A DNA stretch of 16,516 bases from the NCBI GenBank assembly GCA_025449435.1, contig JANWJO010000038.1, forward strand, positions 1 to 16,516, written 5' to 3'. The notes under the pieces are model-generated. The model was not told where the DNA came from and made no database searches. It worked only from the letters and a program-made list of their open reading frames with translations. This document shows, piece by piece, positions 1 to 15,143 of the stretch. The translations under genes were made by a program, and so were the position numbers. Source of the stretch: Chloroflexota bacterium. Lineage in GTDB: Bacteria; Chloroflexota; UBA4733. Numbering within the stretch: the first letter of the stretch is position 1; each line of letters starts with the position of its first letter.

Positions 1-1914
1 CAGCTGGCCACCGAATTGTACTGCTTCGATCAGCACACTGAAGTGGGATATCGGGGCGACTGCCGTCTTGCTTTGCGCCTGGAGTCCGTTCCACTCGAAG
101 GGCGCGAGCTTGCGTTGACCCCTGACCCATCGTGGGTGATGCTCATCACAGGTGGTGCCCGGGGTATTACAGCGCAAATCGCGATTGATCTCGCACGCAG
201 GTATCGGCCGACCTTGCTTATCGTGGGACGGTCACCATTCCCACACGAGCCGGAAGATCCGGAGACGGCAGGGGCACAAACCGAGCATGAGATCAAGGCT
301 GCCATCATCGCTCGCATCCGGAGAACCGGAGAGGTGCCACACCCAGCGGCAATAGAGAACGAAGTGACCCGTCTGCTGCAGCAGCGCGAGATGCGCTCGA
401 CACTACACGCCATTGAGTCGGAAGGCGCGATTGGTCGCTACTTCCAGGTCGAGATGCGCGATGAGCATGCCGTTGCTGCATTCTTCTCCATGCTGTACGA
501 GCACTATCACCGGCTCGATGGTGTGATACACGGCGCGGGTGTCATCGAAGACAAACTCATCGTACAGAAAGAACCTGCAGCGTTCGAGCGTGTGTTCGAA
601 ACCAAAGCGGACAGTGCCTTCTTGCTGGCAAAGCATCTCAACTTTGAGCAACTGCGGTTTCTTGCAATGTTTTCATCGGTGAGCGGGCGATTTGGCAATC
701 GTGGCCAGGCCGACTATGCCGCCGGCAATGAGGTGCTTAATAAGCTCGCGGATGACCTCGATCGTCGGGTATCCGCGCGAGTGTTCGCCATCAACTGGGG
801 TCCGTGGGCCAGTGGCGGCATGGCATCGACCGAGTTGCAGCGGCGGTTCATCGAGCGCGGCGTGGTGTTAATTTCGCCCGAAGCTGGTCCCACCCTCTTT
901 GACAGCGAGATGCGCTGGGGCCGTAAAGGCGAATCGGAAGTCGTGCTCGCTGGTGGTACCTGGCTCCCCCAACTGGAATCCAGCAGTCCGGCGACGGCGT
1001 TGATAACGCGCGGGCCACTCCTCGGCGCGGCTCGCGGCGTTGATCGCATCCCGGTAGCAGCACAATGGCTGCCAGATGGCAGCTTGGTAGCCGACATACA
1101 GCTCGATGTTTCGGTTGATCGGTATCTCCAGGACCATGTGATTGACGGCAAGCCCGTGCTCCCCACGGCGATGGCGCAGGAACTCCTCCTGGAGCTGGTG
1201 AGGCTCGGGTGGCCACAGTTCCCATTTGTGCGCGCACGCGAGCTGCAGGTGCTCAAAGGAGTGGTCATCACTGCGCCAGCGCACACAGTGAGGCTGATTG
1301 CCCGCCCGTTGGAATCGACAGGTGCCCGCAGCGTCGTGCGAGCCTCCATGGTGAGCTGCACCACGCCGGCCAACACCCACTTCAGAATCGATGTTGACCT
1401 TGGCATCGCTCGACCGACACTGGAGAAAGGTGAAACGGCCATCACGTCGCCGCAGCCGTTTCCCTTGTCCGTGAGCGAGGCGTACTATCGGTGGCTCTTC
1501 CATGGCCCGATGCTGGCGCACATCGAGGCGATTCCCAGCATTGGAGAGAACGGCCTCGAAGCGTGGATCACGCCCTCCCAGCCTGATGCGCTGCTCGCTG
1601 GCGCAGGGCCGGGATCCTGGATCGTCGACCCGGTCGTTTTCGACTGCGCTCTGCAGCTGTCGTTGCTGTGGCAACGCTATCGCTGGGATACCACGGGCTT
1701 GCCGGCGCGCTATGGGGAGCTTGTGCGCTATCAATCATTTTCGAACGAGCCGGTGCATTGCAAGGTGCTGGTTGCCCCCGAAGCCAATGCCACCCTGTTT
1801 CGTGCCGATTTTGTCTTTAGCGACAAGAACGGCATGATTATCTGTACCGTCCACGATATGCAGTGCGCCAGCTCCAAGGCACTCAACCGCATTACCGGGC
1901 AGGCTGTCCGCTGA
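1..1914 (+). CDS. Iterative type I PKS/FAS-like protein, 3' part: ketoreductase and dehydratase domains (5'-truncated)
   Basis: The frame is open from base 1 (637 visible residues; numbering here starts at base 1), so the protein almost certainly begins upstream, where KS, AT or ACP domains could lie. A TTG at 16 is not a credible start. Residues about 44-325 form an SDR-type ketoreductase: the nucleotide-binding motif TGGARGI is at 50-56, catalytic Ser at 225/226 (FSSVSGRFGN), Tyr239 and Asn243 (DYAAGN), followed by NWGPWASGGMA. A long helical insertion at about 75-150 is typical of the KR in PUFA, enediyne and related iterative synthases. Residues about 360-620 are a hotdog-fold dehydratase with catalytic His379 (LQDHVIDGKPVLP) and Asp548 (VDPVVFDCALQ), plus the FHGP motif. 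It should reduce and dehydrate beta-ketoacyl-ACP intermediates in the cytoplasm. The next PKS gene starts 43 bases downstream. Domain calls are secure; the full architecture is unknown. Confidence 0.9.
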   Translation, partial: QLATELYCFDQHTEVGYRGDCRLALRLESVPLEGRELALTPDPSWVMLITGGARGITAQIAIDLARRYRPTLLIVGRSPFPHEPEDPETAGAQTEHEIKAAIIARIRRTGEVPHPAAIENEVTRLLQQREMRSTLHAIESEGAIGRYFQVEMRDEHAVAAFFSMLYEHYHRLDGVIHGAGVIEDKLIVQKEPAAFERVFETKADSAFLLAKHLNFEQLRFLAMFSSVSGRFGNRGQADYAAGNEVLNKLADDLDRRVSARVFAINWGPWASGGMASTELQRRFIERGVVLISPEAGPTLFDSEMRWGRKGESEVVLAGGTWLPQLESSSPATALITRGPLLGAARGVDRIPVAAQWLPDGSLVADIQLDVSVDRYLQDHVIDGKPVLPTAMAQELLLELVRLGWPQFPFVRARELQVLKGVVITAPAHTVRLIARPLESTGARSVVRASMVSCTTPANTHFRIDVDLGIARPTLEKGETAITSPQPFPLSVSEAYYRWLFHGPMLAHIEAIPSIGENGLEAWITPSQPDALLAGAGPGSWIVDPVVFDCALQLSLLWQRYRWDTTGLPARYGELVRYQSFSNEPVHCKVLVAPEANATLFRADFVFSDKNGMIICTVHDMQCASSKALNRITGQAVR

Positions 1915-1947
1915 GACGCCTGGGGATGCACGGCAAAGTCCTTGTCA

Positions 1948-1952
1948 GGGGG
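1948..1952 (+). promoter_or_regulatory. Ribosome binding site for the KS-AT-DH-PPTase gene
   Basis: A GGGGG run sits 5 bases upstream of a GTG codon at 1958. It supports GTG 1958 as the start, because no in-frame ATG precedes the conserved KS N-terminus (VAVVGIACVYPQ, beginning about 16 residues in). Confidence 0.5.
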
Positions 1953-1957
1953 CATCG

Positions 1958-4900
1958 GTGACGCGCTTACGGTCAAGGTCGGTTGCTCCCTTACGCGGCG
2001 ACGTCGCGGTGGTAGGAATTGCCTGCGTGTATCCGCAAGCAGCCGACGCTACGGAGTTCTGGCGGAACATCGTGTCCGGCGCGGATGCTATCACAGAATT
2101 TCCGGCAGACCGGATACCGGCCCGCTTTTACGACCCGCAGTCTACTGACCTCTCCACCACCTATGCCAACCGGGGCGGGTTCTTAGGCAAACCGGTGGCG
2201 TTTGATCCGCGTGACTACGGCATGATGCCGGTGATCGTAGAGGCCGGTGAACCCGAGCAGTTTCTGGCGCTCAAGGCAGCGCACCAGGCGCTGCTCGATG
2301 CTGGCTATGACCTTGACCAGATGGATGGTCTGCAAACGGAGGTGGTCGTCGGCAAGGGCAACTACCCGAATCGTGGCATAGCGATCGCCAACCAGCACAT
2401 CAACGAGGTCCCCGACATTGTTGATGTCTGGACATCGTTGCGCCCCGGCAGCGCGGTGGAAGACGTGCGGCGTGCGATCAAGCAGCAACTCACCAAGTTT
2501 GGCCAGGATAATGCCGCGTCACTGGTACCCAACTTCACCTCGGCACGCGTTGCCAATCGTTTCAATCTCATGGGGATGAATTTCACCGTGGATGCGGCAT
2601 GTGCCTCATCACTGGTGGCTTTGGAGATTGGCACACGCGACTTACTCACCGGCAAATGTGACGTGGCGATGGTTGGCGGCGTCTTTTTATTGTCCGACTT
2701 GGTGCCCATCGTCCTCTTCAGCCAGTTGCGCGCCCTGTCGCGCCAGGGGCAGATCCGTCCGTTTGATGCAGCTGCGGACGGCACGCTCATGGGCGAAGGC
2801 GTGGGCATGCTCGTCATCAAGCGTTTGGACGATGCGCAAGCGGATAACGATCGCATCTATGCGGTGGTCAAAGGGGTCGGCTCGGCCAGCGATGGTCGCG
2901 CACTGGCCTTGCTGGCGCCGCGCGTCGAAGGTCAGGTGCTGGCTCTGCAGCGCGCCTTTGAGATGGCCAACGTGTCACCGGACACGCTCGGACTCATCGA
3001 AGCGCACGGCACCGCTACGCTGGCTGGTGACGACGCTGAGATGCAAACGTTGCGTCGCGTGTTTGGTGAGCGATCACTTGACCGCATGCCCCACATTGCG
3101 TTGGGCACGGTGAAGTCTATGATCGGACACGCCATGCCGGCGGCCGGAGCGGCTGGCCTCATTAAGGCCGTGCTATCGCTATACCACAAGGTGTTGCCGC
3201 CGACACTACACGCTGATCACCCCAATCCGAAGCTCAAGTTCGACGACTCGCCGTTCTACCTCAACAGCCGTGCGCGACCCTGGATTCATGGCGGCGGGCG
3301 CCACCCTCGGCGCGCTGGCGTTAACGCATTCGGGTTTGGTGGCGCCAACGCGCACGCCGTGCTTGAGGAATATCGCGATCCTCTGGAGGACGAACGACCG
3401 ACGTTACTGACTGAGTTTCCCACAGAGTTGTGCATAGTGGATGCGCCCGACCGCGAGGGGTTAGTGGTCCGGTTGCATCAGCTTGGCGCATGGCTGGATG
3501 CCAACCAAACGGTCAATCTCCGCGACGTTGCGTACACGTTGCACGGGGAAGCGAAGCTCGGCGGTGCTCGCATCGCCTTCGTCGCTGAGTCACTAGCGGA
3601 CCTTACGCGAAAGGTCCAGCGAGCAGAGCAACGCCTAGGCGACCCCACATGCCTACAGATCAAAGATGCTCGTGGCACCTTCTATTTCTCGGCACCCCTG
3701 GCGACGCAGGGCAAGCTGGCGTTTGTGTTCCCTGGTGAAGGAGCGCAATACGCTGGAATGCTCGCGGACCTGTGTATGCATTTTCCGGTGGTGCGGCGCG
3801 CGTTCGATCACGCTGACGATTCGGGATCCCTCGACTACGTCTATCCTCCACCCTGGCCGGAATGGGAGCAGCGCGCGCAACAGCGGTTGTGGACCAGCAT
3901 CGGCGGAGCGGTGAAGGCTGTGCTCACGGCTGATTTAGCGATGTTGGCCTTGACGCAACAGATCGGGCTCACCCCGGAGGCCGTTCTGGGGCACAGCAGT
4001 GGTGATTTTATAGCGATGCTGGCTGGTGGCATGGCAACGTACGACAACAATACCGCTGCTGGCATGTTTGACTTGTGGGAACAGTACGATAGCCCACAGG
4101 AGAGTCAGGATCGGGTAGGGCTGCTCGCGGTGGGCGGCGACGCGTCCAACATACTGCAGCGGCTGGGTGACCTCGCTGCCAGCGTCACCGTGGCGATGGA
4201 CAACTGCCCACACCAGGCCGTCATTGCCGGACCCGCGGAAACAATCGAGCGTGCACAAACCCTTCTCGTCGCTGGGGGCATCATCTGCGAACGACTGCCG
4301 TTTGACCGGCCCTATCACACCGCGGGATTTGCTGGGCAAAGCGGGCCACTCCGCACCTTCCTCGAGCACGCGCAACTGGAGCCTGCTCGCACCCCCGTGT
4401 ACTCGTGTACCTCTGCGGCTATGTATCCAACGGATGTGGCCGAGGCGCGGCAGCTCGCCATCGAGCACTGGCATACACCGGTTCAGTTCCAGCAGACGAT
4501 ACGCCGCATGTACGCCGACGGCATCCGGTTGTTTGTCGAGGTGGGGCCCCGGCTGAATCTGACATCGTTCATCGATGACATTTTGCGCGGCCAGCAATAC
4601 CTCGCCGTGTCTATGGATAGCCCGCGCAAACACGGTGTGACGCATCTGCAATTTGCGCTCGGCTTGTTGGCGGCGCACGGCGTGAACCTGCGCCTCGATC
4701 CGCTCTTCACCCGCCGCATGCCACAGCTCGTGTCCTTTGTCACCCCAGCTGGCCGTCCTGCCGATCCAGTTCCCACAGTGCCTTTGGCGGTGGCGCAATT
4801 GCACCCACTGGTGATCACACTTCCTGTTGAGGGCACGCCAGGCGTCTCGCCTGAACCGGAACCAAAGGCTTCCGATCCCGTTGGCGTTGAGGTGACTGTG

Positions 4901-7048
4901 CAGCCGCATGAGCACGCCGGCAGCGACGGGGCGGAGCGTTCGACATACGATGACCGAGCCCCACTCGCGGATGACGCAAACGTTGTTAGTGCCTCGGTCA
5001 CGCCCGCGCCAGCGTTAGGCAACGCTGAAGCACGTTTGACGCCACCGCTTCTTGTGCCTAGTGCGCTGGCGTCATTGCCGGACGCGCAATCCGAAGCCGC
5101 GATGACGGGCTACCTGCAAGTTATGGAAGAGTTCCTGGCCGTCCAGCAGGCCGTCATGGAGTCGTTCTTTGCGCCGCAAAGTGCTGCGATGCCATCGAGT
5201 CCGCCAGAGGTCGATGTAAGTCCACCCGACAGTGAGCCGGCGTCGCCGCTTGGCCCGGAGGTCCCTCTTGCCGGCGTCTCACCGGTAGCGGCTCAGCCGC
5301 AGGATTACGCCGCCGGAGAGCACGCTGAGTATCCACTGTTAGGCAGCATACGGTCGTACCTGGCTGGCAAGGCACTGCGGGCCGAACGGACGCTCAGCGT
5401 GGACGCCGATGCATTTCTCAAGGACCACACCCTGGGCAGGACGGTATCGGCTGATCCACGCCTGTTGCCCCTGGCCGTTGTGCCCATGACCGTGAGTCTG
5501 GAAATTATGGCCGAAGCGGCCCAGGCATTGTTTCCGCGACTGTGCGTCACCGGAATGGAACACGTGCGCTCAATGCGCTGGATCGTCGTACGTGAGCTGC
5601 CAACCACGATACATATTGTGGCAGAGCAGGTCCGCCAGGTGGAGAACCAGCAATGGGTCCGGGTGTCACTGTGGGATGGCGACCCTGGTCGTGAACCAAA
5701 CGCTACTCCCGCCGCCCAAGGTATGGTGCGGCTCGAGCCGGCGTATCCAACGCCACCAACACTTGAACCACTGGAGCTAGCTGGTGCCCGGCCGTACGGG
5801 TCGACCGTGGCGGACATCTATCGCTACCTGTTTCACGGGCCGCGTTTTCGCGCGATCTCGGCGCTGCACACGATCGGTGATGATGGTCTCATCGGTGAGC
5901 TGAAAGCGCTCGACCTCAGTGGCCTGCGTGGAATCGGTACCCAGCAGCCATTTGTGCTTGATCCTGTGCTGTTCGATGCGGCTGGCCAGCTCCTCGGGGC
6001 GTGGGCGTATGAGCAGATTGCCAAGACGGCCGTAATCTTCCCCATTGGCATCGATATGGTCACGCTGTTTGGTCCCCGCCTCGATCTACCGGCGACGCTT
6101 CTCGCGCAGGTGCGCATGCTGGAGTTTGGTCACCGGCAGGTGCGTGCCACCGTGGAACTCGCGGATGCAAGCTCTCGTGTCTTTGCGCGACTGGAAGGGT
6201 GGCGCGACTTCCGCTTCCACGTTCCCGAGCACCGGTTTCGCATGTTTCACGCTCCCCAAGATGAACTGAGCGGGGAACTCTGGCCGGTGGCCACTGCCGG
6301 TTTGCCAGCCAGGGGAGGGTACGTCGCGGTGCTGGTGGAGGGGGTGGCTGAGAAGGACAATGACACGCTGAGCGATGTGGTGGGAAACCTGGTGCTGAGT
6401 CAGGCGGAACGCTCGTACTGGCAAGGCATGCCTGGAGCTGCGATGCGGAAAGCAGAATGGCTCATTGGGCGCATCGCTATCAAGGATGCCGCGCGAACGT
6501 TTGTATTTGAGCGATCTGGCAGCCGTGCATATCCGGCCGACGTTGAAGTGGTGCCTGATGCCAACGGGCGCCCAACGGTCGGTGGGCTTGCCCTTGCCGG
6601 CATGGTTGCTCCCGTCGTGACTCTTTCGCACAAGGGGCTTGTCGCGGTAGCCGTAGCTGGGGATGCTGAGCAGAGCCCATATCTTGGCATTGACATTGAA
6701 CCGGTACGATCCAGGCCGGAAGGGTTCACCTCCCTGGCGTTTTCGGTGGGAGAGCATGCGTTGCTGGACACGATTGACGTGAGCGACCGTGATGAATGGA
6801 TGACGCGCTTGTGGTGCGCTAAAGAGGCAGTTGCCAAGGCAACTGGGTTGAGCCATCGCGCCGGACCAGCGGATGTCGAGATTCGGTTCATCGATCAAGC
6901 GATGGGGACCGTGCACGCCGTGCTCGCCGGTGAGCTGGCTCATCAGGTACCTGGCTTGGGTACCGCACCACTGATCGTGCACACGGCGCGAGCACACGGC
7001 TTCATCGTGGCTACAACCGCGGCGGAGAGAGTAGGGGAACACGCATGA
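1958..7048 (+). CDS. Iterative PKS/FAS-like megasynthase: ketosynthase, acyltransferase, dehydratase and fused phosphopantetheinyl transferase
   Basis: This 1696-residue protein has four domains. The KS (about 15-475) has the catalytic triad Cys215 (DAACASSL), His350 (EAHGTAT) and His391 (KSMIGHAMPAAG); the KSMIGH form is typical of PUFA-synthase and heterocyst-glycolipid KS domains. The AT (about 588-880) has nucleophile Ser680 in GHSSGD and His787 in RPYHTAGF. A Pro/Glu/Ala-rich linker (about 925-1110) contains an amphipathic helix at 1049-1071. The hotdog DH (about 1115-1435) has His1157 (LKDHTLG) and Asp1340 (DPVLFDAAGQ). The C-terminal Sfp-type PPTase (about 1500-1690) has GIDIE at 1577-1581 and WCAKEA at 1619-1624. 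I see no ACP or ER in it. It would load an extender unit, perform decarboxylative condensation and dehydration on the separate ACP encoded next, and activate that ACP itself. GTG start with a strong ribosome binding site; the stop overlaps the ACP start (ATGA). Product chain length and extender are unknown. Confidence 0.93.
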   Translation: MTRLRSRSVAPLRGDVAVVGIACVYPQAADATEFWRNIVSGADAITEFPADRIPARFYDPQSTDLSTTYANRGGFLGKPVAFDPRDYGMMPVIVEAGEPEQFLALKAAHQALLDAGYDLDQMDGLQTEVVVGKGNYPNRGIAIANQHINEVPDIVDVWTSLRPGSAVEDVRRAIKQQLTKFGQDNAASLVPNFTSARVANRFNLMGMNFTVDAACASSLVALEIGTRDLLTGKCDVAMVGGVFLLSDLVPIVLFSQLRALSRQGQIRPFDAAADGTLMGEGVGMLVIKRLDDAQADNDRIYAVVKGVGSASDGRALALLAPRVEGQVLALQRAFEMANVSPDTLGLIEAHGTATLAGDDAEMQTLRRVFGERSLDRMPHIALGTVKSMIGHAMPAAGAAGLIKAVLSLYHKVLPPTLHADHPNPKLKFDDSPFYLNSRARPWIHGGGRHPRRAGVNAFGFGGANAHAVLEEYRDPLEDERPTLLTEFPTELCIVDAPDREGLVVRLHQLGAWLDANQTVNLRDVAYTLHGEAKLGGARIAFVAESLADLTRKVQRAEQRLGDPTCLQIKDARGTFYFSAPLATQGKLAFVFPGEGAQYAGMLADLCMHFPVVRRAFDHADDSGSLDYVYPPPWPEWEQRAQQRLWTSIGGAVKAVLTADLAMLALTQQIGLTPEAVLGHSSGDFIAMLAGGMATYDNNTAAGMFDLWEQYDSPQESQDRVGLLAVGGDASNILQRLGDLAASVTVAMDNCPHQAVIAGPAETIERAQTLLVAGGIICERLPFDRPYHTAGFAGQSGPLRTFLEHAQLEPARTPVYSCTSAAMYPTDVAEARQLAIEHWHTPVQFQQTIRRMYADGIRLFVEVGPRLNLTSFIDDILRGQQYLAVSMDSPRKHGVTHLQFALGLLAAHGVNLRLDPLFTRRMPQLVSFVTPAGRPADPVPTVPLAVAQLHPLVITLPVEGTPGVSPEPEPKASDPVGVEVTVQPHEHAGSDGAERSTYDDRAPLADDANVVSASVTPAPALGNAEARLTPPLLVPSALASLPDAQSEAAMTGYLQVMEEFLAVQQAVMESFFAPQSAAMPSSPPEVDVSPPDSEPASPLGPEVPLAGVSPVAAQPQDYAAGEHAEYPLLGSIRSYLAGKALRAERTLSVDADAFLKDHTLGRTVSADPRLLPLAVVPMTVSLEIMAEAAQALFPRLCVTGMEHVRSMRWIVVRELPTTIHIVAEQVRQVENQQWVRVSLWDGDPGREPNATPAAQGMVRLEPAYPTPPTLEPLELAGARPYGSTVADIYRYLFHGPRFRAISALHTIGDDGLIGELKALDLSGLRGIGTQQPFVLDPVLFDAAGQLLGAWAYEQIAKTAVIFPIGIDMVTLFGPRLDLPATLLAQVRMLEFGHRQVRATVELADASSRVFARLEGWRDFRFHVPEHRFRMFHAPQDELSGELWPVATAGLPARGGYVAVLVEGVAEKDNDTLSDVVGNLVLSQAERSYWQGMPGAAMRKAEWLIGRIAIKDAARTFVFERSGSRAYPADVEVVPDANGRPTVGGLALAGMVAPVVTLSHKGLVAVAVAGDAEQSPYLGIDIEPVRSRPEGFTSLAFSVGEHALLDTIDVSDRDEWMTRLWCAKEAVAKATGLSHRAGPADVEIRFIDQAMGTVHAVLAGELAHQVPGLGTAPLIVHTARAHGFIVATTAAERVGEHA

Positions 7049-7341
7049 TTACTCGGGTCACTATCAAAGAGGACGTGCTGGCATTGTTCAAAGAGTTGCG
7101 CGGCGATTGGGAGTCCAGCGATGAGGACATCCGCGAAGACTCGTACGTGCTTGAGGACCTGGGCTTTGAAAGTATTGATGCCGTTGCACTTGGTACCAGC
7201 ATCGAGGAGAAGTACCAACGCCCGCTGCCGTTCGCGCAGTTTCTGCTCGACTTGCAAGAACAAGAGAAGCGCGACTTCACCGTGGGCCAGCTCATTGATT
7301 TCGTTGCACGGGAGTTAAACACGGCGGAGGTGCCTCGGTGA
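7045..7341 (+). CDS. Discrete acyl carrier protein
   Basis: A 98-residue acidic protein of the length and helical pattern of an ACP. The phosphopantetheine attachment site is the Ser in DLGFESIDAV (about residues 42-51), with an acidic residue following two positions later as in most ACPs. It would carry the growing chain as a thioester for the KS/AT/DH and KR/DH proteins encoded just upstream, and the PPTase fused to the upstream KS protein is the obvious activator. Its ATG overlaps the upstream stop by 4 bases, and its own stop overlaps the GTG of the next gene by 4 bases. All three should therefore be translationally coupled. The stretch after the Ser is longer and more charged than in classical FAS ACPs (EKYQRPLPFAQFLLDLQEQE), as in stand-alone PKS carriers. 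The family call is firm; the partnership is inferred from position. Confidence 0.9.
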   Translation: MITRVTIKEDVLALFKELRGDWESSDEDIREDSYVLEDLGFESIDAVALGTSIEEKYQRPLPFAQFLLDLQEQEKRDFTVGQLIDFVARELNTAEVPR

Positions 7342-8963
7342 CCACGGCCACAACGACGCTGTTCATCGGCTTGGACGGTGCGACCTTTACCATTCTGGAT
7401 CCGCTGATGGCTGCTGGGCAGATGCCGCGATTGGCCGCGCTCGTGCGCACCGGCGTCCGCGCTGTGCTCAATTCCACCGTTCATCCCTTAACACCGCCGG
7501 CGTGGACGTCGGTGATGACAGGTCGTTCGCCCGGAAACCACGGCATCCTTGATTTCTACCGGCCAGAGTCTGCCGATGCTCGCGTGCTGACCATTGCGAC
7601 GGCGCGGGACGTGCGGTGTGAGACGGTCTGGCAGATCGCCAACCGCTACGAACAGCGTGTGATCACCTTGAACTTCCCCATGATGTCGCCGCCGCGTCCC
7701 ATCGATGGCGTCGTGATTCCCGGGTGGGTGCCGTGGCGCCACCTGCGGATGTCTAGCCGCCCAGCGGGGTTGTTTGACCAGTTCAAGTCAATTGCGGGTT
7801 TCGATCCGCGCAGCCTGACCGTGGACCTGGTGGAGGAGGGGCGCGCCCTGGAAGGTATGGGCACCGATGATGCGATTACCTGGGTACGCGAGCACGTGCA
7901 CCGCGAATCCCTCTGGCACGCGATTACCAAGACGCTCATGCGTGACGCCCCAGCGCCACTGACCGCCGTGCTGTTCGACGGTACGGACAAGATTCAGCAC
8001 CTGTGTTACCGGCTGCTCGACCCCGCGCTCCAACAGGGCGACTATTCACCGCAGGAGCAAGAGGTTCGTGAGGAAGCCACCGGTTATTATCGGGAACTCG
8101 ATCGCTTCATCGGCGACCTGGTGGATCAGGCTGGGCCACAGGCGCGCGTCGTAATTGCTTCGGACCACGGCTTCGGTCCCTGGCGCAAGGTGTTTCATCT
8201 CAACGCCTGGCTCCATCAACACGGCTACTTACACTGGACGGAACAATCGGTGGGCGGAGGCAACCGTGGCCAGGAAATACCTGGCGAGCTGGGCCTAGAC
8301 GCACCTCGCAAGCAGGCCTACCTCATCGATTGGGACCGCACGATTGCCTATGGCATCAGTGTGAGTGGCAACGGGATACGCATCCGCCGAGCTGGCGACC
8401 AAGGTATGGGCGTTGCACCGGAAGACTACGAGCAGGTCCGCCGCGCGATCGCCGACGGTCTCCGCGCGGTGCGCGACCCCGAAACCGGTGAGCTAGTGGT
8501 GCGCCAGGTGTTGACGAACGAAGAGGCGTTTCCTGGCGCCGCGTCGCCTCAAGCCCCCGACCTGACGGTACTCATGCAGGACTACGGCCTGGTGTCACTG
8601 CTTAACAGGCCCAACGTAGTTCGCCGGCGTTCGGCTGTGTTTGGGACGCATTATCCGGCGGGGATCTTTATTGCTGCTGGACCGGGCATTCGTTCCGGTG
8701 CCGTCTTGCCGGACATGGCGATTGTGGATGTGGCTCCTACCCTCCTGTATAGCTTGGGTATACCGGTGCCTGCGAACTTCGAGGGCGCGATCCCACAAGA
8801 TGCGTTCGTACCGGAGTTCCTCGCACAGTATCCGCCACGGCCCGGGCCACCTACGCTGCCGCAAGCGTCGTTCATGAGCCAAGCTGACAAGGCGCCCATG
8901 TCGGAGAGTGACGAAGCCGAGATGATGCGCCGCCTTGGTGCGTTAGGGTACGTTGAGTCGTAA
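7338..8963 (+). CDS. Alkaline-phosphatase-superfamily phosphodiesterase/phosphohydrolase (type I phosphodiesterase/nucleotide pyrophosphatase-like)
   Basis: This 541-residue protein has the full metal-site signature of the superfamily. Asp13 is in FIGLDGATF and the putative nucleophile Thr52 is in LTPPAWTS. Asp217 and His221 lie in a DxxxH motif (DGTDKIQH), Asp276-His277 in ASDHGFG, and His438 in FGTHYPAG. Two zinc-like ions are expected. There is no signal peptide or membrane helix, so it is probably cytoplasmic. Family members hydrolyse or transfer phosphate or phosphodiester groups; the substrate here cannot be read from sequence. The GTG start overlaps the ACP stop by 4 bases (GTGA), an arrangement that favours a role tied to the carrier protein or its product. 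Candidate roles are cleavage of a phosphodiester in a product precursor or processing of a phospho-lipid headgroup. A housekeeping role unrelated to the synthase is possible but less likely given the coupling. Confidence 0.85.
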   Translation: MTTATTTLFIGLDGATFTILDPLMAAGQMPRLAALVRTGVRAVLNSTVHPLTPPAWTSVMTGRSPGNHGILDFYRPESADARVLTIATARDVRCETVWQIANRYEQRVITLNFPMMSPPRPIDGVVIPGWVPWRHLRMSSRPAGLFDQFKSIAGFDPRSLTVDLVEEGRALEGMGTDDAITWVREHVHRESLWHAITKTLMRDAPAPLTAVLFDGTDKIQHLCYRLLDPALQQGDYSPQEQEVREEATGYYRELDRFIGDLVDQAGPQARVVIASDHGFGPWRKVFHLNAWLHQHGYLHWTEQSVGGGNRGQEIPGELGLDAPRKQAYLIDWDRTIAYGISVSGNGIRIRRAGDQGMGVAPEDYEQVRRAIADGLRAVRDPETGELVVRQVLTNEEAFPGAASPQAPDLTVLMQDYGLVSLLNRPNVVRRRSAVFGTHYPAGIFIAAGPGIRSGAVLPDMAIVDVAPTLLYSLGIPVPANFEGAIPQDAFVPEFLAQYPPRPGPPTLPQASFMSQADKAPMSESDEAEMMRRLGALGYVES

Positions 8964-9015: not shown

Positions 9016-9855
9016 ATGCGTAAAGTCCTGGCAAACGGCGTCAGCCTTCATGTCCAACAGCATGGCGAGGGGAGCGACGTCATTTTGGTTCACGGGCTCA
9101 CCAGTAATCTGGCGTTTTGGACCTTGACTGTGCTGCCAGCCTTTGCCAAGCATCACCGCGTCACGATCTACGATTTGCGCGGGCATGGGTTCAGCGACGT
9201 GCCGGCCAGCGGGTATACCACACTGGACATGGCGGCCGATCTGCATGGCTTAATGGATGGGCTCGGCATCGAGCACGCGCATGTCATCGGCCACAGTTTC
9301 GGCGGCACGATCGCGATGCACCACGCGCTGCTGTATCCGCACCGCGTCGACTCGTTGGTGGCGACGGATCCCGCCATTCCGGCCCTGCGCAAATACCAAT
9401 CGTTCCAGGAATGGCCGATGTATGCCGAAGTCGTGCGGCAGTTTGATACCTACGGCGTCAAGCTGCCGCCGAATGGCGACCTGTGGGATCTGGCTGCCTT
9501 GCTACCCGAACTGAAAAACCTGCCCATGCAGCACGGCCTCCGCCAAGGCAAGACGAGACGCTTGACCCGCATGAATCGCCTCATGCACGAGACGACCGTC
9601 ATGGTCGATTTTCATGAAGAAGCGGGCCTCACGGAGGAACGCATCAAGAGCCTATCTACGCCCTTGCTGGCGATTTACGGCGAGTTAAGCCCATTTCTGG
9701 GCAGCTGCCGGTTTCTCGAACAGCACGTGGCCTCCTGCCGAACACTGATTGTGCCGGGTAGCGGCCATCTGGTGCCAGCGCTGGCGCCCGATGCGTTTGT
9801 CCAGCCCGTGCTCGCTCACATCGATGCTGTAGAAAAGGCGCATCAGGCGGCCTGA
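9016..9855 (+). CDS. Alpha/beta-fold hydrolase
   Basis: A 279-residue single-domain alpha/beta hydrolase. The oxyanion-hole motif VHGLTSN follows the first strand (about 24-31) and the nucleophile elbow GHSFGG carries Ser94. The catalytic His is His251 in GSGHLVPAL. The acidic member is uncertain: Glu223 (AIYGELS) is one candidate. The DLRGHGFSD strand-turn motif is typical of the MhpC-like/esterase branch. It has no signal peptide. The ATG at 9016 is preceded by GAGGAA at 9005-9010, 5 bases away. Since neither visible synthase protein has a thioesterase domain, this enzyme is the best local candidate for hydrolytic release of the chain from the ACP, or for hydrolysing an ester or lactone of the product. 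That role is inferred only from context; C-C bond hydrolysis or a general esterase role is equally compatible with the fold. Confidence 0.85.
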   Translation: MRKVLANGVSLHVQQHGEGSDVILVHGLTSNLAFWTLTVLPAFAKHHRVTIYDLRGHGFSDVPASGYTTLDMAADLHGLMDGLGIEHAHVIGHSFGGTIAMHHALLYPHRVDSLVATDPAIPALRKYQSFQEWPMYAEVVRQFDTYGVKLPPNGDLWDLAALLPELKNLPMQHGLRQGKTRRLTRMNRLMHETTVMVDFHEEAGLTEERIKSLSTPLLAIYGELSPFLGSCRFLEQHVASCRTLIVPGSGHLVPALAPDAFVQPVLAHIDAVEKAHQAA

Positions 9856-9910: not shown

Positions 9911-10369
9911 ATGACGATTTATGTGGAGGAAGTCGCTATCGATGCGCCGATAGAGCAGGTGTTTCAGATGATCGCCGACCCATCTCATTTTCCGGAGTAC
10001 GTCACGGCGTGTACCGCCGTGCGGTGGCCGGGTGGTGTGGTGCCGGTGGGCGGACAGTACACCATCATTGGCGGCGGAGCTGCGCGCACTGGAGAAGTTC
10101 GATACACCGTTACGGTTTGTGAGCCGCCATTCAAGGTGAGCGCTACGTTTCGCGGGCCAGTGGGAGGCGGCAGCGTGAGTACGACGCTGGAAACAACCCC
10201 AACGGGTACGGCGCTTAAACAGACCATGCAGCACGCCACGCGCGTCGGATTGGCGAGCTTGGTACCCGCAGGCGTCGTCACTGACACGATGCGTCGAGCT
10301 CAGCGCCGCACGCTCGACACGCTCAAGCGTGTTGTCGAGGATCACGCCGCACGCGGCGCCACCGCGTAA
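9911..10369 (+). CDS. SRPBCC (START-like) polyketide cyclase/dehydrase-family protein
   Basis: A 152-residue protein with the SRPBCC N-terminal signature: a first strand VEEVAIDAP, the helix motif EQVFQMIADPSHFPEY (about 16-31), alternating beta strands and a long amphipathic C-terminal helix (about 123-145). The fold makes a deep hydrophobic cavity that binds lipids or polyketides; members include aromatase/cyclases, lipid carriers and proteins of unknown role. It lies 55 bases after the hydrolase and 65 bases before the P450, inside the tailoring part of the cluster. It may therefore bind, cyclise or shield the acyl product before oxidation. No catalytic residues can be assigned. The ATG at 9911 has only a distant GGAAGGG (9890-9896 region) upstream, so initiation may be weak or coupled to upstream translation. 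Confidence 0.8.
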   Translation: MTIYVEEVAIDAPIEQVFQMIADPSHFPEYVTACTAVRWPGGVVPVGGQYTIIGGGAARTGEVRYTVTVCEPPFKVSATFRGPVGGGSVSTTLETTPTGTALKQTMQHATRVGLASLVPAGVVTDTMRRAQRRTLDTLKRVVEDHAARGATA

Positions 10370-10423
10370 ATGAGCGACCGTCCGCAACGTGATGGGTTGG
10401 TTGGCAAGACGCCTTATGCAGAT

Positions 10424-10427
10424 GGAG
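10424..10427 (+). promoter_or_regulatory. Ribosome binding site for the cytochrome P450 gene
   Basis: GGAG lies 7 bases upstream of a GTG at 10435. It fixes that GTG as the start, giving a short N-terminus before the proline-rich PPGPPGYPIVGS motif. Confidence 0.5.
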
Positions 10428-10434
10428 CAGTGAC

Positions 10435-11850
10435 GTGGTTGTAACTGCCGGTAAAACCGGCTTGCGAACGCCGCCCGGGCCACCTGGTTACCCCATCGTG
10501 GGCAGTTTGCTCACTTGGGGCCGTGATCCTCTGCAATTCTTCGTGCGTATCCGGCAATCGTTTGGTGACGTGGTTGGCTTCCGCATGCTCAACCGACAGT
10601 TCATCTTGCTGTCTAATCCTGAGCACATCAAGTATGTGCTGCAGGACAACAACCAGAACTACGAGAAGAACACGCCGAATTTCTTCCTCCGGCGTCTGGA
10701 GCCTTTGCTCGGTCGCGGTTTGGCTACGACCAACGGCGACTACTGGCTCAAACAACGCCGGTTGGTGCAGCCCGCCTTCCACAGGCAGCGCGTGGCTGAC
10801 TGGACAGGCATTATGGCTACCTCCACGCAGGCCATGCTCGGGCAATGGGATGAACGAGCGGCCTCGGGCCGGCCGATTGATCTTGATAGTGCGCTCCGGC
10901 AATTGACGCTGGACATCTTGGTGCACACGCTCACACCGCTTGGTAGCGAAGTGACGCAGGACGCTGAGGCGGTGCGTGCCATCCTCCAAGATTGGATGGC
11001 GCGAACGCGCCGCCTGCCAAGTCTTATTCTGCTGCTCCTGGACCTGCCAACGCGACAGAACCGCCGTTTTCATGAAGCGATCACCACGCTGGATCGGGTG
11101 ATTTACCGCCTGATCGACGAACGGCGCAAGGCGGGTGCCGAGGGTTCCGACCTGCTATCGGTGTTGTTGCAGGCGAGGGACGCTGACTCTGGCGCAAGCC
11201 TATCGGACAAAGAAATTCGGGATCAGGTCGCCACCATCTTTGCTGGTGGTTTTGAGACCACCGCCACTGCCCTGTCGTTTACGTTTGCGCTCCTGGCACA
11301 GCATCCAGAGGTGGTGCGGCAACTGGAGCAAGAGGTCGACACGGTACTCGGAGATCGCACGCCGACCTTTGCGGACGTTCCCAATCTGCCCTACACGAGT
11401 ATGGTGTTTGAAGAAGCACTGCGGCTCTACCCGCCGAACTGGGCGTTGCGGCGCATCCCCATCGCCGATGATGCTGTTGGCAACTATCGTATACCGGCTG
11501 GCACCACGGTGGTCCTCAGCACCTACGTACTCCACCACGATGCGCAGTATTGGCACGAGCCCGAGCGGTTTGATCCATCGCGGTTTGCGGCTGGAGAAGG
11601 TGCTGGACGTCCGCGTTTTGCCTACTTCCCGTTCGGCGGTGGTCCGAGGCAGTGTATTGGCAACTATTTCGCCACGATCGAGGCTCAAATTATCATCGCT
11701 ATGGTGGTCCAACGGTTCCGTACCCACCTGGTCAGTGGTCACCAGGTACGCATCCAGCCTTCCATTCCGCTGCGCCCCAAGGGAGGGTTGCCCGTGACCC
11801 TCGAGCGACGGGTGAAGCGCGGAGCGCACGTGGCGCCGGAAGTGAGTTAG
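10435..11850 (+). CDS. Cytochrome P450 monooxygenase
   Basis: A 471-residue P450 of normal length. It has the proline-rich hinge PPGPPGYPIVGS near the N-terminus, the C-helix motif WLKQRR, the oxygen-activating I-helix AGGFETT (270-276), the K-helix ExxR with Glu327 and Arg330 (EEALRLYP), and the haem loop FGGGPRQCIGN with ligand Cys407. There is no N-terminal membrane anchor, so it should be soluble and need separate ferredoxin or flavoprotein partners; none is encoded in the window. The motif style resembles bacterial relatives of CYP4/CYP102/CYP110, which often hydroxylate fatty acids or terpenoids; this placement is from memory. In the cluster it most likely hydroxylates the released or ACP-bound acyl chain, creating the hydroxyl on which the two downstream glycosyltransferases could act. 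The downstream membrane-protein gene starts 5 bases after its stop. Confidence 0.93.
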   Translation: MVVTAGKTGLRTPPGPPGYPIVGSLLTWGRDPLQFFVRIRQSFGDVVGFRMLNRQFILLSNPEHIKYVLQDNNQNYEKNTPNFFLRRLEPLLGRGLATTNGDYWLKQRRLVQPAFHRQRVADWTGIMATSTQAMLGQWDERAASGRPIDLDSALRQLTLDILVHTLTPLGSEVTQDAEAVRAILQDWMARTRRLPSLILLLLDLPTRQNRRFHEAITTLDRVIYRLIDERRKAGAEGSDLLSVLLQARDADSGASLSDKEIRDQVATIFAGGFETTATALSFTFALLAQHPEVVRQLEQEVDTVLGDRTPTFADVPNLPYTSMVFEEALRLYPPNWALRRIPIADDAVGNYRIPAGTTVVLSTYVLHHDAQYWHEPERFDPSRFAAGEGAGRPRFAYFPFGGGPRQCIGNYFATIEAQIIIAMVVQRFRTHLVSGHQVRIQPSIPLRPKGGLPVTLERRVKRGAHVAPEVS

Positions 11851-11855
11851 CAACG

Positions 11856-12398
11856 ATGGCTGGGACACAGCACCGCTGGGCTCGCCACGGTGGCCTGGTG
11901 TATTTTCTTATTGCGTTGCATTTGGTGACGCGCGGAACCCTCGTGTCGCTGCTGGTGTTGCTCCTGCTTGCTACCCAACAACACTGGTTGGCCCTGGGAG
12001 GCATACAGGCGATGTTCGCCGGAAATCATATTCTTGATGGCTATCCAATCTTGGCAACGCTCGTGAACGCCGGCCTTGCGTTGTTCACGGCGCACCCGCA
12101 AGCTGTCCTCGTGAGCCTCGTGGCGTATGGGACCGTCGAGTTAGCGCAAGGGATTGGGCTGTTACGTCAAGAACGCTGGGGTGAATACCTTACAGTCCTG
12201 TTTAGCGTGAGCTTTGTGCCGTTTGAACTGCGGGGACTGGTGCAACAGGGCGAACTACGCACCGCCATCCTGTTGCTCATTAATCTCGCCGTGATCGCCT
12301 ACCTCGTTCGTACGCGTCGCCTCTGGCCTGTGAGCATCCTTATCCGGCCTGAGAACACACCAGTTAGAGCCACCCCGTCGACCAGCCAGGGCACCTAA
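11856..12398 (+). CDS. DUF2127-like small integral membrane protein
   Basis: The ATG at 11856 gives 180 residues and is preferred over upstream in-frame codons because those lie deep inside the P450 coding sequence. About four hydrophobic helices are visible at 13-39, 81-104, 108-125 and 136-152. The pattern HGGLVYFLIALH near the start, YGTVELAQGIGLLRQERWGEYLTV in the middle (split here over about 91-114) and INLAVIAYLVRTRR at the end matches my recollection of DUF2127. That family has no established function. The last 30 residues are polar and probably cytoplasmic. The gene is packed between the P450 (5-base gap) and the first glycosyltransferase (11-base gap), so it is likely co-expressed. 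It might assist membrane localisation or export of the glycosylated product, but nothing in the sequence shows this directly. Confidence 0.75.
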   Translation: MAGTQHRWARHGGLVYFLIALHLVTRGTLVSLLVLLLLATQQHWLALGGIQAMFAGNHILDGYPILATLVNAGLALFTAHPQAVLVSLVAYGTVELAQGIGLLRQERWGEYLTVLFSVSFVPFELRGLVQQGELRTAILLLINLAVIAYLVRTRRLWPVSILIRPENTPVRATPSTSQGT

Positions 12399-12409: not shown

Positions 12410-13699
12410 GTGCGGCTCACCCTGATCGCACTCGGTACCCGTGGTGATGTGCAGCCCCTATTCGCTTTGGGCGGTGGCCTGCGGCAGGCTGGCTACCAAG
12501 TGACGGTCGCGACACACGAACAGTACATGCCTGATGTGCTCGCCCACGGGCTTGAGTTCGCGCTGGTATCTGGAGACCCAACGACCACGTTCGCCCGCGA
12601 GCGGCGAGCCCTCACGTCGGGACGCCGCTCACTGGTGACGACGCTCGCTGGCTTGCGCTATCTGAGCCAGAACTACCAGAACCGTGCGGCGTTGCTGCAG
12701 CAAGTGATCGCAGAGTGCCTCAACGCCAGCAAGGATGCGCAGGCCATTATTGCCATGATGCCGGTGACGTTCTTCGCACCGATGATTGCGGAGCGGCTGG
12801 GCGTGCCGTGCCTGTTCACGGCCTTCGCGCCACTGGCGCGCACAGCTGAATTCCCGATGCTGAGCTTTCCCACAGCGCCCAGCCGGTTGCCCAGCTATAA
12901 CCAGTTGACCTATGAAGTGACGCAGCGGATCGTGGTGCGCCTGGCTACACCTCTCTTGAGCACCAGCCGGCGTTCACTCGGTTTGCCCCACCGCTCTGGA
13001 TATACCCTGCGTGAGCAATTGCAAAGCTCAGCGCACCCGTGGCTGTACTGTTTCAGCCAGTGCGTTGTACCCAGGCCCAGCGACTGGGACACTCACCTGC
13101 ACGTCACAGGATATTGGTTTGCGGACCGTACTTCGAACTGGCAGCCGCCGGACGAGGTAGCCCGGTTTCTGGCCGCCGGACCGCCGCCAGTGTACGTTGG
13201 CTTTGGCAGTATGCCAACCGATGATCCGGTGAGCATGACAAAGGTGCTCCTGGCAGCTCTGGAGCAGGTGGGGTGCCGGGGCATCATTGCCACCGGCGCT
13301 GGCGGCCTGTCCGGTGCCAGTGTCCCGGAGCGCATCATGACGGTTGCCGGGCTACCTCACGATTGGCTGCTCCCTCAAGTGGCGGCGGTTGTCCATCATG
13401 GAGGAGCGGGTACCACCGGTGCAGCGCTGCGCGCTGGCAAGCCCTCTGTGGTGATTCCATTTTACAGTGACCAACCGTTTTGGGGGCAGCGCGTCCACGC
13501 GCTCGGTGCCGGACCCAAGCCCATCCCGGCTCGCCGTCTTTCACGGCAACGCCTCGCCGCGGCCATGAACCAAGCTCTGTCCGAGCCTGCCATGCAGCAA
13601 CACGCCGCTGCTTTAGGTGTGTGCATCCGCTCGGAGGACGGCATCGGCCGGGCGGTAGCGGTGGTCGATGCCGCCCTACGAAGCGGTGGAAAAGCCTGA
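12410..13699 (+). CDS. GT1-family glycosyltransferase, sterol/lipid glucosyltransferase-like (first of tandem pair)
   Basis: A 429-residue GT-B-fold enzyme. The N-terminal domain begins with ALGTRGDVQPLFALG, the hallmark of the sterol 3-beta-glucosyltransferase/MGT-like branch, and continues with VTVATH and a GLEF motif. The C-terminal nucleotide-sugar domain has HHGGAGTT with His329-His330 (329-336) and the sugar-contacting Asp354-Gln355 in YSDQPFWGQR. No signal peptide or membrane helix is present, so it should act at the cytoplasmic face using a UDP- or dTDP-sugar. Its closest local relative is the gene that follows, which it overlaps by one base. Given the upstream P450, a hydroxylated lipid or polyketide is the expected acceptor. 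The sugar donor cannot be read from sequence. Confidence 0.9.
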   Translation: MRLTLIALGTRGDVQPLFALGGGLRQAGYQVTVATHEQYMPDVLAHGLEFALVSGDPTTTFARERRALTSGRRSLVTTLAGLRYLSQNYQNRAALLQQVIAECLNASKDAQAIIAMMPVTFFAPMIAERLGVPCLFTAFAPLARTAEFPMLSFPTAPSRLPSYNQLTYEVTQRIVVRLATPLLSTSRRSLGLPHRSGYTLREQLQSSAHPWLYCFSQCVVPRPSDWDTHLHVTGYWFADRTSNWQPPDEVARFLAAGPPPVYVGFGSMPTDDPVSMTKVLLAALEQVGCRGIIATGAGGLSGASVPERIMTVAGLPHDWLLPQVAAVVHHGGAGTTGAALRAGKPSVVIPFYSDQPFWGQRVHALGAGPKPIPARRLSRQRLAAAMNQALSEPAMQQHAAALGVCIRSEDGIGRAVAVVDAALRSGGKA

Positions 13700-14979: not shown

Positions 14980-15019
14980 CACGAAGTTGGGATCACCCAC
15001 TGTCCAGTCCACGCTTCAT

Positions 15020-15041
15020 GCCAAGTGTTGGGACTTGTGGC
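15020..15041 (+). terminator. Weak hairpin after the biosynthetic operon
   Basis: GCCAAGT and ACTTGTGGC can pair as a 7-bp stem with a 2-base bulge around a GTTGGG loop. It lies 40 bases after the last glycosyltransferase stop. There is no T-tract, so it is at best a partial or factor-dependent termination site. Confidence 0.22.
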
Positions 15042-15051
15042 AGGATACACA

Positions 15052-15080
15052 TTCGGATGTGCACCGCAACGTGCTATAGT
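15052..15080 (+). promoter_or_regulatory. Candidate sigma-70-type promoter for the downstream membrane-protein gene
   Basis: TATAGT at 15075-15080 is a good -10 box and is preceded by TG one base upstream (an extended -10). A poor -35 match, TTCGGA, lies at 15052-15057 with a 17-base spacer. The expected start of transcription is near 15087, leaving about a 57-base leader before ATG 15144. It is the only promoter-like stretch noticed between the operon and this gene. An imperfect inverted repeat (CACAT, 4 bases, ATGTG; 15048-15061) covers the -35 element and might be an operator. Confidence 0.35.
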
Positions 15081-15128
15081 CCCCTACCGCGCCCACCCAT
15101 CCAGACTCGTCTTCTTCAGGCAGCTTCT

Positions 15129-15133
15129 GGAGG
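15129..15133 (+). promoter_or_regulatory. Ribosome binding site for the membrane-protein gene
   Basis: GGAGG lies 10 bases upstream of ATG 15144. It supports this start, which places the first membrane helix close to the N-terminus. Confidence 0.45.
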
Positions 15134-15143
15134 ATCGAACGGT

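What the first reader, a model, noticed from the sequence alone, without database searches (positions are those of the whole stretch)
1..7341. Split iterative PKS/FAS with KR-DH and KS-AT-DH-PPTase on separate proteins and an ACP in trans
The enediyne PKS arrangement as known (KS-AT-ACP-KR-DH-PPTase on one chain) appears here redistributed over at least three proteins, with a discrete single ACP and a DH on each large protein. Canonical PUFA synthases carry tandem ACPs and an ER; neither is visible here. The layout, coupled to a P450 and two glycosyltransferases, does not match a described pathway that I recognise and may make an uncharacterised glycolipid or glycosylated polyene.
Basis: partly seen in the sequence, partly recalled or inferred. 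Interest (0 to 1): 0.75.

Follow-up and report, generated by a model that had tools for sequence, protein, structure and literature searches.

The report
Two-megaenzyme bacterial secondary-lipid synthase operon
An unidentified bacterium carries an edge-truncated copy of an uncharacterised but recurring gene set that should build a long lipid chain and then decorate it, probably with sugars; it is related to the machinery that makes omega-3 fatty acids, cyst phenolic lipids and heterocyst glycolipids, and its product is unknown.

Summary
The reading needs correcting. The 'missing' ER, KS and further ACPs are most likely just upstream of base 1: in relatives KR(-DH) is the end of an ER(PfaD-like)-KS-AT-ACP(n)-KR(-DH) gene 1, whole or split before KR. 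The KS is not enediyne-type: it sits in a strongly supported clade of gene-2 KSs, apart from the PfaA and ArsA-type KSs. The nearest systems are secondary-lipid (Pfa/Ars/Hgl-like) synthases. Of 24 KS-AT-DH-PPTase loci with room downstream, 17 have both a phosphodiesterase-like gene and an alpha/beta hydrolase; of 19 ars-like loci, none has either. GT1 glycosyltransferases lie nearby in 7 of 21. I infer an iterative long-chain lipid that is released, oxidised by the P450 and glycosylated. I found no described pathway with this operon in an open-access library, but the figure-level layouts of Shulse & Allen 2011 could not be seen. A new variant of a known kind; moderate interest.

The parts
1..1914 (+). 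C-terminal part of gene 1: KR + PKS-type DH (637 aa visible; 5' end cut by the window)
   Evidence: Pfam PF08659, PF21089, PF14765; KR Ser 676-678, Tyr 715-717, Asn 727-729; DH His 1135-1137, Asp 1642-1644
1958..7048 (+). Gene 2: KS-AT-linker-DH-PPTase, 1696 aa, GTG start
   Evidence: Pfam PF00109/PF02801, PF00698, PF14765, PF01648; P0006-P0010 are 49-51% identical over the whole length
1991..3382 (+). KS domain of gene 2 (KS2 clade), Cys 2600-2602, His 3005-3007, His 3128-3130
   Evidence: boundaries approximate
3707..4612 (+). AT domain, Ser 3995-3997, His 4316-4318
   Evidence: boundaries approximate
5330..6247 (+). DH domain of gene 2 (PKS-type), His 5426-5428, Asp 5975-5977
   Evidence: boundaries approximate
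6392..7027 (+). Integrated PPTase domain (LGIDIE 6683-6700, WCAKEA 6812-6829)
   Evidence: boundaries approximate
7045..7341 (+). Discrete ACP, Ppant Ser 7171-7173; overlaps the gene 2 stop
   Evidence: Pfam PF00550; a homologous small ACP lies in the same place in many relatives
7338..8963 (+). PDE: alkaline-phosphatase-superfamily phosphodiesterase/nucleotide-pyrophosphatase-like protein, 541 aa
   Evidence: PF01663; 42-50% identical to 15 genes in the same place in relatives; AF2 model matches NPP and phosphonoacetate hydrolase folds
9016..9855 (+). ABH: alpha/beta hydrolase, candidate release enzyme
   Evidence: PF00561; syntenic in relatives
9911..10369 (+). SRPBCC 'polyketide cyclase/lipid transport' family protein
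   Evidence: PF10604; no tblastn match at E<=1e-6 in the 80 loci
10435..11850 (+). Cytochrome P450
   Evidence: PF00067; no tblastn match at E<=1e-6 in the 80 loci
11856..12398 (+). DUF2127 membrane protein
   Evidence: PF09900; no match in the 80 loci
12410..13699 (+). GT1-type (EryCIII/MGT-like) glycosyltransferase a
   Evidence: PF06722, PF03033
13699..14979 (+). GT1-type glycosyltransferase b, 41% identical to a
   Evidence: PF06722, PF03033

Best explanation
The window holds most of an operon for a secondary-lipid synthase: an iterative type I FAS/PKS of the Pfa/Ars/Hgl broad class. Gene 1 (mostly upstream, unseen) is expected to be ER-KS-AT-ACP(n)-KR-DH, whole or split before KR. Gene 2 is KS-AT-DH-PPTase. 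Shown: domain content, intact catalytic residues, gene order conserved in relatives. Inferred: the PPTase activates the ACPs; malonyl units are loaded by the ATs; KS1 and KS2 elongate or act as a pair; KR, the two DHs and the upstream ER process each round, so that a long, partly or fully reduced chain results; the chain passes to the discrete ACP and is released by the alpha/beta hydrolase, with the phosphodiesterase-like protein acting on a release or head-group step; then P450 oxidation and one or two glycosylations give a long-chain (hydroxy)lipid glycoside.
For: Domains and residues. The best NCBIfam match of both large ORFs is the PfaA model, in the expected parts: gene 1 piece at 1999-2579, gene 2 KS-AT at 9-924 of 2582. 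Gene 1 of relatives starts with PF03060 in 7 of 7 N-termini scanned, and one gene 1 read whole is NMO-KS-AT-ACP-KR-DH, 2811 aa. Of 80 loci, 34 have KS-AT-(ACP)-DH-PPTase; all 29 of these with over 2 kb upstream have a KR-bearing gene just before. PDE follows in 20 of 28 with >=2.2 kb; of 24 with >=3.5 kb, PDE in 18, ABH in 18, both in 17; GT1 in 7 of 21 with >=7 kb. Control: PDE 0 and ABH 0 of 19 ars-like loci. GT1 pairs in L005, L006, L145, L148. KS in a 100/99-supported clade of gene-2 KSs. A published parallel for the sugar step: HglT glycosylates the PKS-made aglycone of heterocyst glycolipids (PMC11804610, section 6 and passages).
Against: No sequence upstream of base 1 and no genome is held, so ER, KS1 and further ACPs are inferred. 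The window's GTs are only 23-32% identical to the relatives' GTs compared, which are 40-62% identical among themselves, so they may be a separate recruitment; one of the 7 GT1-bearing loci, L065, lacks PDE and ABH, and GT1 also occurs in 2 of 19 ars-like loci. SRPBCC, P450 and DUF2127 had no match in the 80 loci: their link is by position only. 8 of 28 gene-2 loci lack PDE. In some relatives gene 1 ends after KR without a DH (L084 by Pfam). I know of no product for any member found.
Confidence: 0.7

Rival explanations
1. A minimal three-protein synthase: KR-DH is a protein of its own, nothing else of the synthase lies upstream, and one KS with one trans ACP does all the work without an ER.
For: P0124, P0125, P0129, P0130 and P0137 appear to be discrete ~825-aa KR-DH proteins and form one clade. 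Gene 2 itself has KS-AT-DH-PPTase and an ACP lies beside it.
Against: Of the 29 complete gene-2 loci with over 2 kb upstream, all have a KR-bearing gene 1 next to gene 2, 18 with KS-AT-ACP in the same ORF; six more (L007, L026, L037, L044, L061, L065) have KR on a separate ORF preceded by a KS-AT-ACP ORF; the other five are cut by the contig end. Whether the discrete P0124-type genes have a KS-AT-ACP gene upstream could not be seen.
Confidence: 0.1
2. The synthase is real but the P450, SRPBCC, DUF2127 and glycosyltransferases belong to another pathway, and the product is a free long-chain lipid or fatty acid.
For: SRPBCC, P450 and DUF2127 have no match in the 80 loci; only 7 of 21 loci have a GT1 nearby, and the window's GTs are distant from those.
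Against: Gaps of 5-65 nt and one overlap tie ABH through GT1b into one run; tandem GT1 pairs recur downstream of the hydrolase in four other loci, and a Streptomyces plasmid copy has ACP-hydrolase-glycosyltransferase-methyltransferase.
Confidence: 0.25
3. A true omega-3 type PUFA synthase.
For: The PfaA model is the best NCBIfam match of both large ORFs; relatives carry a PfaD-like ER, and whole gene 1 passes the PfaA cut-off in 2 of 6 relatives' genomes, one of them the ars-like Beijerinckia.
Against: The window's matches are below the cut-off, 251 and 572 against 1010 bits (gene 1 is a fragment). Pfam shows PKS-type DHs only, no FabA-type DH in the window. The gene-2 KS keeps its Cys, whereas the second KS (CLF) of two PfaC-like genes, L130 and L131, has lost it. 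The window KS is outside the PfaA clade.
Confidence: 0.04
4. A rearranged enediyne PKS.
For: The same domain types are present.
Against: The KS groups with gene-2 KSs at 100/99 support and SgcE does not join them (one PKSE reference only). The neighbours of the C-1027 PKSE (DUF1702, CRTAC1, RnfD-like) are not in the window.
Confidence: 0.01
5. An ars-type phenolic-lipid synthase.
For: Gene 2's DH-PPTase is homologous to the DH-PPTase protein that follows the chalcone-synthase-like (type III PKS) genes in Beijerinckia indica, and gene 1 there has the same NMO-KS-AT-ACP-KR layout.
Against: No type III PKS in the window. The second protein of the ars-like loci has no KS-AT, and none of 19 ars-like loci has PDE or ABH downstream.
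Confidence: 0.03

Closest known systems
Secondary lipid synthases of Shulse & Allen 2011 (PMC3098273; opening part and sections 6-8 read, figures not held)
   Same: PfaA-like iterative FAS/PKS split over few proteins, clustered PPTase, many phyla; PPTase has the x(G/D)xP motif.
   Different: No text description in the parts read of KS-AT-DH-PPTase followed by ACP-PDE-hydrolase; Type O or others could match in their Figure 1, which I could not see.
Azotobacter/Beijerinckia Ars (Type P) phenolic-lipid system
   Same: Gene 1 ER-KS-AT-ACP-KR; second protein with DH and PPTase homologous to the C-terminal half of gene 2.
   Different: Ars has type III PKS genes between them, no KS-AT in the second protein and no ACP-PDE-hydrolase.
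Heterocyst glycolipid (Hgl) system
   Same: PfaA-like PKS plus a glycosyltransferase that makes a lipid glycoside.
   Different: From the text: Hgl has hglC (KS-CLF-AT), and the legend lists a thioester reductase and ABC transporter; here the PPTase is fused, the gene 2 KS keeps its Cys, and release appears hydrolytic.
PUFA synthases (PfaA-D)
   Same: KS-AT-ACP-KR-DH and PfaD-type ER modules (the ER and gene-1 KS seen in relatives only).
   Different: No KS-CLF and no FabA-type DH seen; PPTase fused to a KS-AT-DH protein.
Enediyne PKSE (SgcE)
   Same: Domain set overlaps.
   Different: One chain; different KS lineage; no enediyne cassette in the window.

Membership tests
Omega-3 PUFA synthase (Pfa) | PfaA model TIGR02813 over its cut-off | tested here: not met
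   251.4 and 571.7 bits against 1010.1. Weak test: gene 1 is a fragment, and relatives' whole gene 1 passes in 2 of 6 genomes
Omega-3 PUFA synthase (Pfa) | KS-CLF pair with Cys-less CLF | tested here: not met
   Single KS in gene 2 with Cys-His-His; upstream unseen
Omega-3 PUFA synthase (Pfa) | FabA-type DH/isomerase pair in PfaC (FabA type recalled) | tested here: not met
   Only PKS-type DH families found in the two large ORFs; upstream unseen
Omega-3 PUFA synthase (Pfa) | Tandem ACPs | tested here: inconclusive
   None visible; the stretch lies upstream; relatives have 1-4
Secondary lipid synthase (Shulse & Allen) | PfaA-homologous proximal KS | not testable with these tools
   Gene 1 KS, if present, lies upstream of base 1; the gene 2 KS is in the KS2 clade
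Secondary lipid synthase (Shulse & Allen) | PPTase P1a motif x(G/D)xP | tested here: met
   NGRP in gene 2; motif
Secondary lipid synthase (Shulse & Allen) | PPTase P1b' motif hShxH (types M-T) | tested here: inconclusive
   Window has VTLSH, Thr for Ser; relative P0006 has VSLAH
Ars phenolic-lipid system | Type III PKS gene(s) beside the FAS genes | tested here: not met
   None in the window; upstream unseen. Present in the Beijerinckia indica and Methylosinus loci
Ars phenolic-lipid system | Second protein DH-PPTase without KS-AT | tested here: not met
   Gene 2 has KS-AT
Heterocyst glycolipid (Hgl) system | Glycosyltransferase beside the synthase | tested here: met
   Two GT1-type genes; homology to HglT not tested
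Heterocyst glycolipid (Hgl) system | Thioester reductase and KS-CLF protein | tested here: not met
   None in the window; upstream unseen
Enediyne PKS | KS-AT-ACP-KR-DH-PPTase on one chain | tested here: not met
Enediyne PKS | KS of the PKSE lineage | tested here: not met
   one PKSE reference only (SgcE), on a long branch
Two-megaenzyme operon described here | KS-AT-(ACP)-DH-PPTase followed by ACP, PDE, hydrolase | tested here: met

The most novel reading that the evidence does not exclude
A large uncharacterised family of lipid synthases, in at least seven phyla, in which the chain-length-factor position is held by a second, catalytically complete KS (KS2), and in which release uses a dedicated discrete ACP with an NPP-like phosphodiesterase and a hydrolase rather than a known thioesterase or reductase. 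In Lentisphaerae, Verrucomicrobia and Kiritimatiellae records (L041, L062, L063, L074) a stand-alone KS before AT-DH-PPTase has lost the nucleophile Cys, as in a true CLF; three of these nest in the KS2 clade of the careful tree, which fits a partner role for KS2. The window's version would make an oxidised, glycosylated member.
Probability: 0.25. Interest if true: 0.7.

Novelty: new variant of a known kind. Interest (0 to 1): 0.45.

Why it matters
Gene sets with gene 2, PDE and hydrolase recur in records named as Chloroflexota, Acidobacteriota, Myxococcota, Pseudomonadota, Cyanobacteriota, Actinomycetota and Thermodesulfobacteriota, so their unseen lipid could be a recurring membrane or surface component. 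The ACP-PDE-hydrolase trio gives a clean test of how such chains are released, and the KS1/KS2 pairing bears on how chain-length factors arose.

Tried and rejected
Own genome of the window: none held. Searches for a closer complete locus: with A2 at E<=1e-60, 1 of 400 genomes of the phylum of G003, the centre itself; with A1 at E<=1e-150, 24 of 396 genomes of the phylum of G409 (Bryobacterales), of which 5 gave matches over 1080 bits that are gene 2, while the other loci taken (L120-L129) read KS-AT, KS-AT-ACP(n), KS-AT-ACP-KR or NMO-KS-AT-ACP; with A1 at E<=1e-250, 2 of 249 and 3 of 158. Only the top 2-3 candidates per genome were scored, so these are lower bounds. By KS distance none of the loci is nearer than P0006-P0010, whose contigs could not be reached; the loci came after that tree and were not put in it.

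KR-DH tree, to decide whether the window's KR-DH is split or fused: unresolved (the window row went in twice by mistake). KS2 grouping with the PfaC CLF: support 0.93 in FastTree, not recovered in the careful tree, where the CLF branch is 3.9 changes long, so not claimed. In that same FastTree a fork of six rows joins the two CLFs with four rows of the unlabelled class, not listed by name; in the careful tree the Cys-less L041, L062 and L063 are in the KS2 clade and the CLFs are not. Enediyne, PUFA and ars membership rejected as given. MSAS-type and HglE KS references were not obtained, so that part of the suggested tree was not done. Rfam: no match. Promoter/terminator scan at 14900-15300: none.

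Own domain HMMs are made from the session's proteins, not curated, and the counts depend on them and on thresholds I chose; checked with Pfam on 7 gene-1 N-termini and on some whole genes. Of the 30 loci scored DH-PPTase only, 11 are not preceded by a detected NMO-KS-AT-ACP gene, several being cut by a contig end or frame-shifted; they were left out of the 19 ars-like controls. Chalcone-synthase-like genes were checked in two of these systems only (L082, L088).

Papers: PMC3098273 opening part and sections 6, 7, 8 read, plus passages; PMC13291983 outline, section 5 and part 1 of section 7; PMC11804610 section 6 and passages; PMC4824345, PMC11520301, PMC10308959 passages only. PMC2242712 not held. 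That I found no described operon of this layout rests on searches of an open-access library.
Full report
Observation. The window is 16,516 bases at about 61% G+C; the genes described lie on the + strand. Pfam finds KR, PKS_DH_N and PS-DH in ORF 1-1914; KS, AT, PS-DH and ACPS (PPTase) in ORF 1958-7048; PP-binding in ORF 7045-7341. The run continues with an alkaline-phosphatase-superfamily phosphodiesterase (PDE), an alpha/beta hydrolase (ABH), an SRPBCC protein, a P450, DUF2127, and two GT1-type glycosyltransferases 41% identical to each other. Gaps between neighbours are 43, -4, -4, 52, 55, 65, 5, 11 and -1 nt, then 164 nt before a 7TM histidine-kinase-like ORF, so the run looks like one operon ending near 14979; no terminator-like site was found there. 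Catalytic residues of each domain are present in the window. In the aligned session rows they are strongly conserved: KS Cys 121 of 125, AT Ser 128 of 128, AT His 123 of 128, gene-2 DH His 77 of 83 and Asp 83 of 83, PPTase Asp 79 of 79 and Glu 76 of 79, KR Tyr 64 of 64, gene-1 DH His 23 of 23 and Asp 24 of 24, ACP Ser 133 of 133.

What lies upstream. The window starts inside gene 1. I aligned the C-terminal DH-PPTase part of gene 2 with six homologues and searched one genome per species: 282 stretches matched a pattern, 228 encoded a relative, the best 80 were kept. With session-made domain HMMs, the gene before gene 2 reads KS-AT-ACP(n)-KR(-DH) in 18 of the 29 complete gene-2 loci with over 2 kb upstream; in six (L007, L026, L037, L044, L061, L065) KR is on a separate ORF preceded by KS-AT-ACP; five are cut by the contig end. 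Extending loci upstream showed that gene 1 begins with a PfaD/nitronate-monooxygenase-type domain (PF03060) in 7 of 7 N-termini scanned; one of the seven, L101, is the ars-like Beijerinckia mobilis locus. Gene 1 ORFs run from about 2,300 to 2,900 aa; in some, such as the Streptomyces plasmid copy, Pfam shows no DH after KR. So 'no ER, one ACP' is most likely an effect of the window edge. Whether the window's KR-DH is split or fused cannot be told: the tree did not resolve it.

How common and how conserved. Of the 80 loci, 34 have gene 2 as KS-AT-(ACP)-DH-PPTase; the others score as DH-PPTase (30), AT-(ACP)-DH-PPTase (14), one giant fusion and one without a detected PPTase. Counting only loci with enough sequence downstream: PDE in 20 of 28 (>=2.2 kb) and a detected small ACP in 13 of 28; of 24 with >=3.5 kb, PDE in 18, ABH in 18, both in 17; GT1 in 7 of 21 and a beta-propeller-like protein in 14 of 21 (>=7 kb). 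The eight of 28 without PDE are L010, L035, L037, L044, L061, L065, L070 and L076; of these L065 is one of the seven with GT1. As a control, 19 ars-like loci (DH-PPTase preceded by NMO-KS-AT-ACP-KR) have PDE in 0, ABH in 0 and GT1 in 2. Among the 14 AT-(ACP)-DH-PPTase loci PDE is in 2 and ABH in 5. So PDE and ABH go mainly with the KS-AT-DH-PPTase form. In the genome samples searched, gene 2 is rare.

The GT link. L005 and L006 carry GT1 pairs, L001 and L002 a single GT1, after ABH; two further loci have pairs (L145, L148); a Streptomyces plasmid has gene 1, gene 2, ACP, hydrolase, glycosyltransferase and methyltransferase in a row, without PDE. The window's two GTs are only distantly related to these (23-32% identity, against 40-62% among the others), so the association recurs but the enzymes may be separately recruited.

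Phylogeny. In a careful IQ-TREE of 51 KS domains the window KS groups with P0008 (98/89) and then P0006 (100/100) inside a 23-row clade of gene-2 KSs (100/99). PfaA KSs with a Persicobacter KS form a clade (100/99), gene-1 KSs with the ars KSs another (88/97); SgcE sits on a long branch in an unresolved fork and modular KSs lie outside. All 48 rows labelled KS2 and 58 labelled KS1 have Cys-His-His. Four KSs that stand alone before AT-DH-PPTase genes, in Lentisphaerae, Verrucomicrobia and Kiritimatiellae records (L041, L062, L063, L074), have lost the Cys; the three of them in the careful tree nest in the KS2 clade. In FastTree four unlabelled-class rows instead join the PfaC CLFs. This fits, but does not prove, a partner (CLF-like) role for KS2.

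Mechanism. Established: the domain inventory, residue conservation and gene order above. Inferred: activation of ACPs by the fused PPTase; iterative elongation with KR/DH/ER processing; passage to the discrete ACP; hydrolytic release by ABH; an NPP-like phosphoryl-transfer or hydrolysis step by PDE. In 16 aligned PDEs, Asp13, Asp214, Asp217, His221, Asp276, His277 and His438 are invariant and position 58 is Ser or Thr, as expected of a metal-dependent hydrolase of this superfamily (residue roles recalled, not tested). The PDE model (mean pLDDT 86.3) best matches bacterial and mammalian NPPs and phosphonoacetate hydrolase, which gives a chemistry, not a substrate. P450 and GT action on the product is inferred from position.

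Against what is known. Both large ORFs match the PfaA model best but below its cut-off; relatives' whole gene 1 passes it in 2 of 6 genomes, so this alone does not separate them from PfaA. Shulse & Allen 2011 (PMC3098273) describe 20 types of secondary lipid synthase, fourteen with uncharacterised products; the parts I read name no ACP-PDE-hydrolase operon, but their Figure 1 is not held and Type O (Dinoroseobacter, Parvularcula, Gloeobacter) or another type may have a similar domain layout. The ars system is the nearest with a known product (Beijerinckia indica locus; Ars roles from passages of PMC4824345). The hgl system is the nearest functional parallel for a glycosylated product (PMC11804610). 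Verdict: a new variant of a known kind, product unknown.

Noticed in passing
L002:17216-19444, L001:16791-18794, L045:14638-16092, L005:20001-21701 and others: A conserved protein family without a Pfam match in those scanned and, for L002's copy, without a PDB sequence match sits downstream in 14 of 21 KS-AT-DH-PPTase loci; a model (mean pLDDT 77.6) resembles Kelch-type beta-propellers at low TM-score. Not seen in the window.
   Followed up: partly
L041, L062, L063, L074: Stand-alone KS genes before AT-DH-PPTase genes have lost the nucleophile Cys though three of them nest in the KS2 clade: apparent conversion of an active KS to a CLF-like protein.
   Followed up: partly
window 9911-12398: SRPBCC, P450 and DUF2127 genes are inserted between the conserved hydrolase and the GT pair; no match to any of the three in the 80 loci.
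   Followed up: partly
window 15144-16514: ORF with a HisKA_7TM N-terminal region, cut by the window end, 164 nt after the operon.
   Followed up: no
window 5111-5158 (gene 2 linker): A conserved amphipathic-looking stretch (YLQVMEEFLAVQQAVM) in the Pro/Ala-rich linker, where some relatives carry an ACP; possible docking element or remnant.
   Followed up: no
L051: One Actinobacteria record has both genes in a single 3365-aa ORF, NMO-KS-AT-ACP-KR-AT-DH-PPTase.
   Followed up: no
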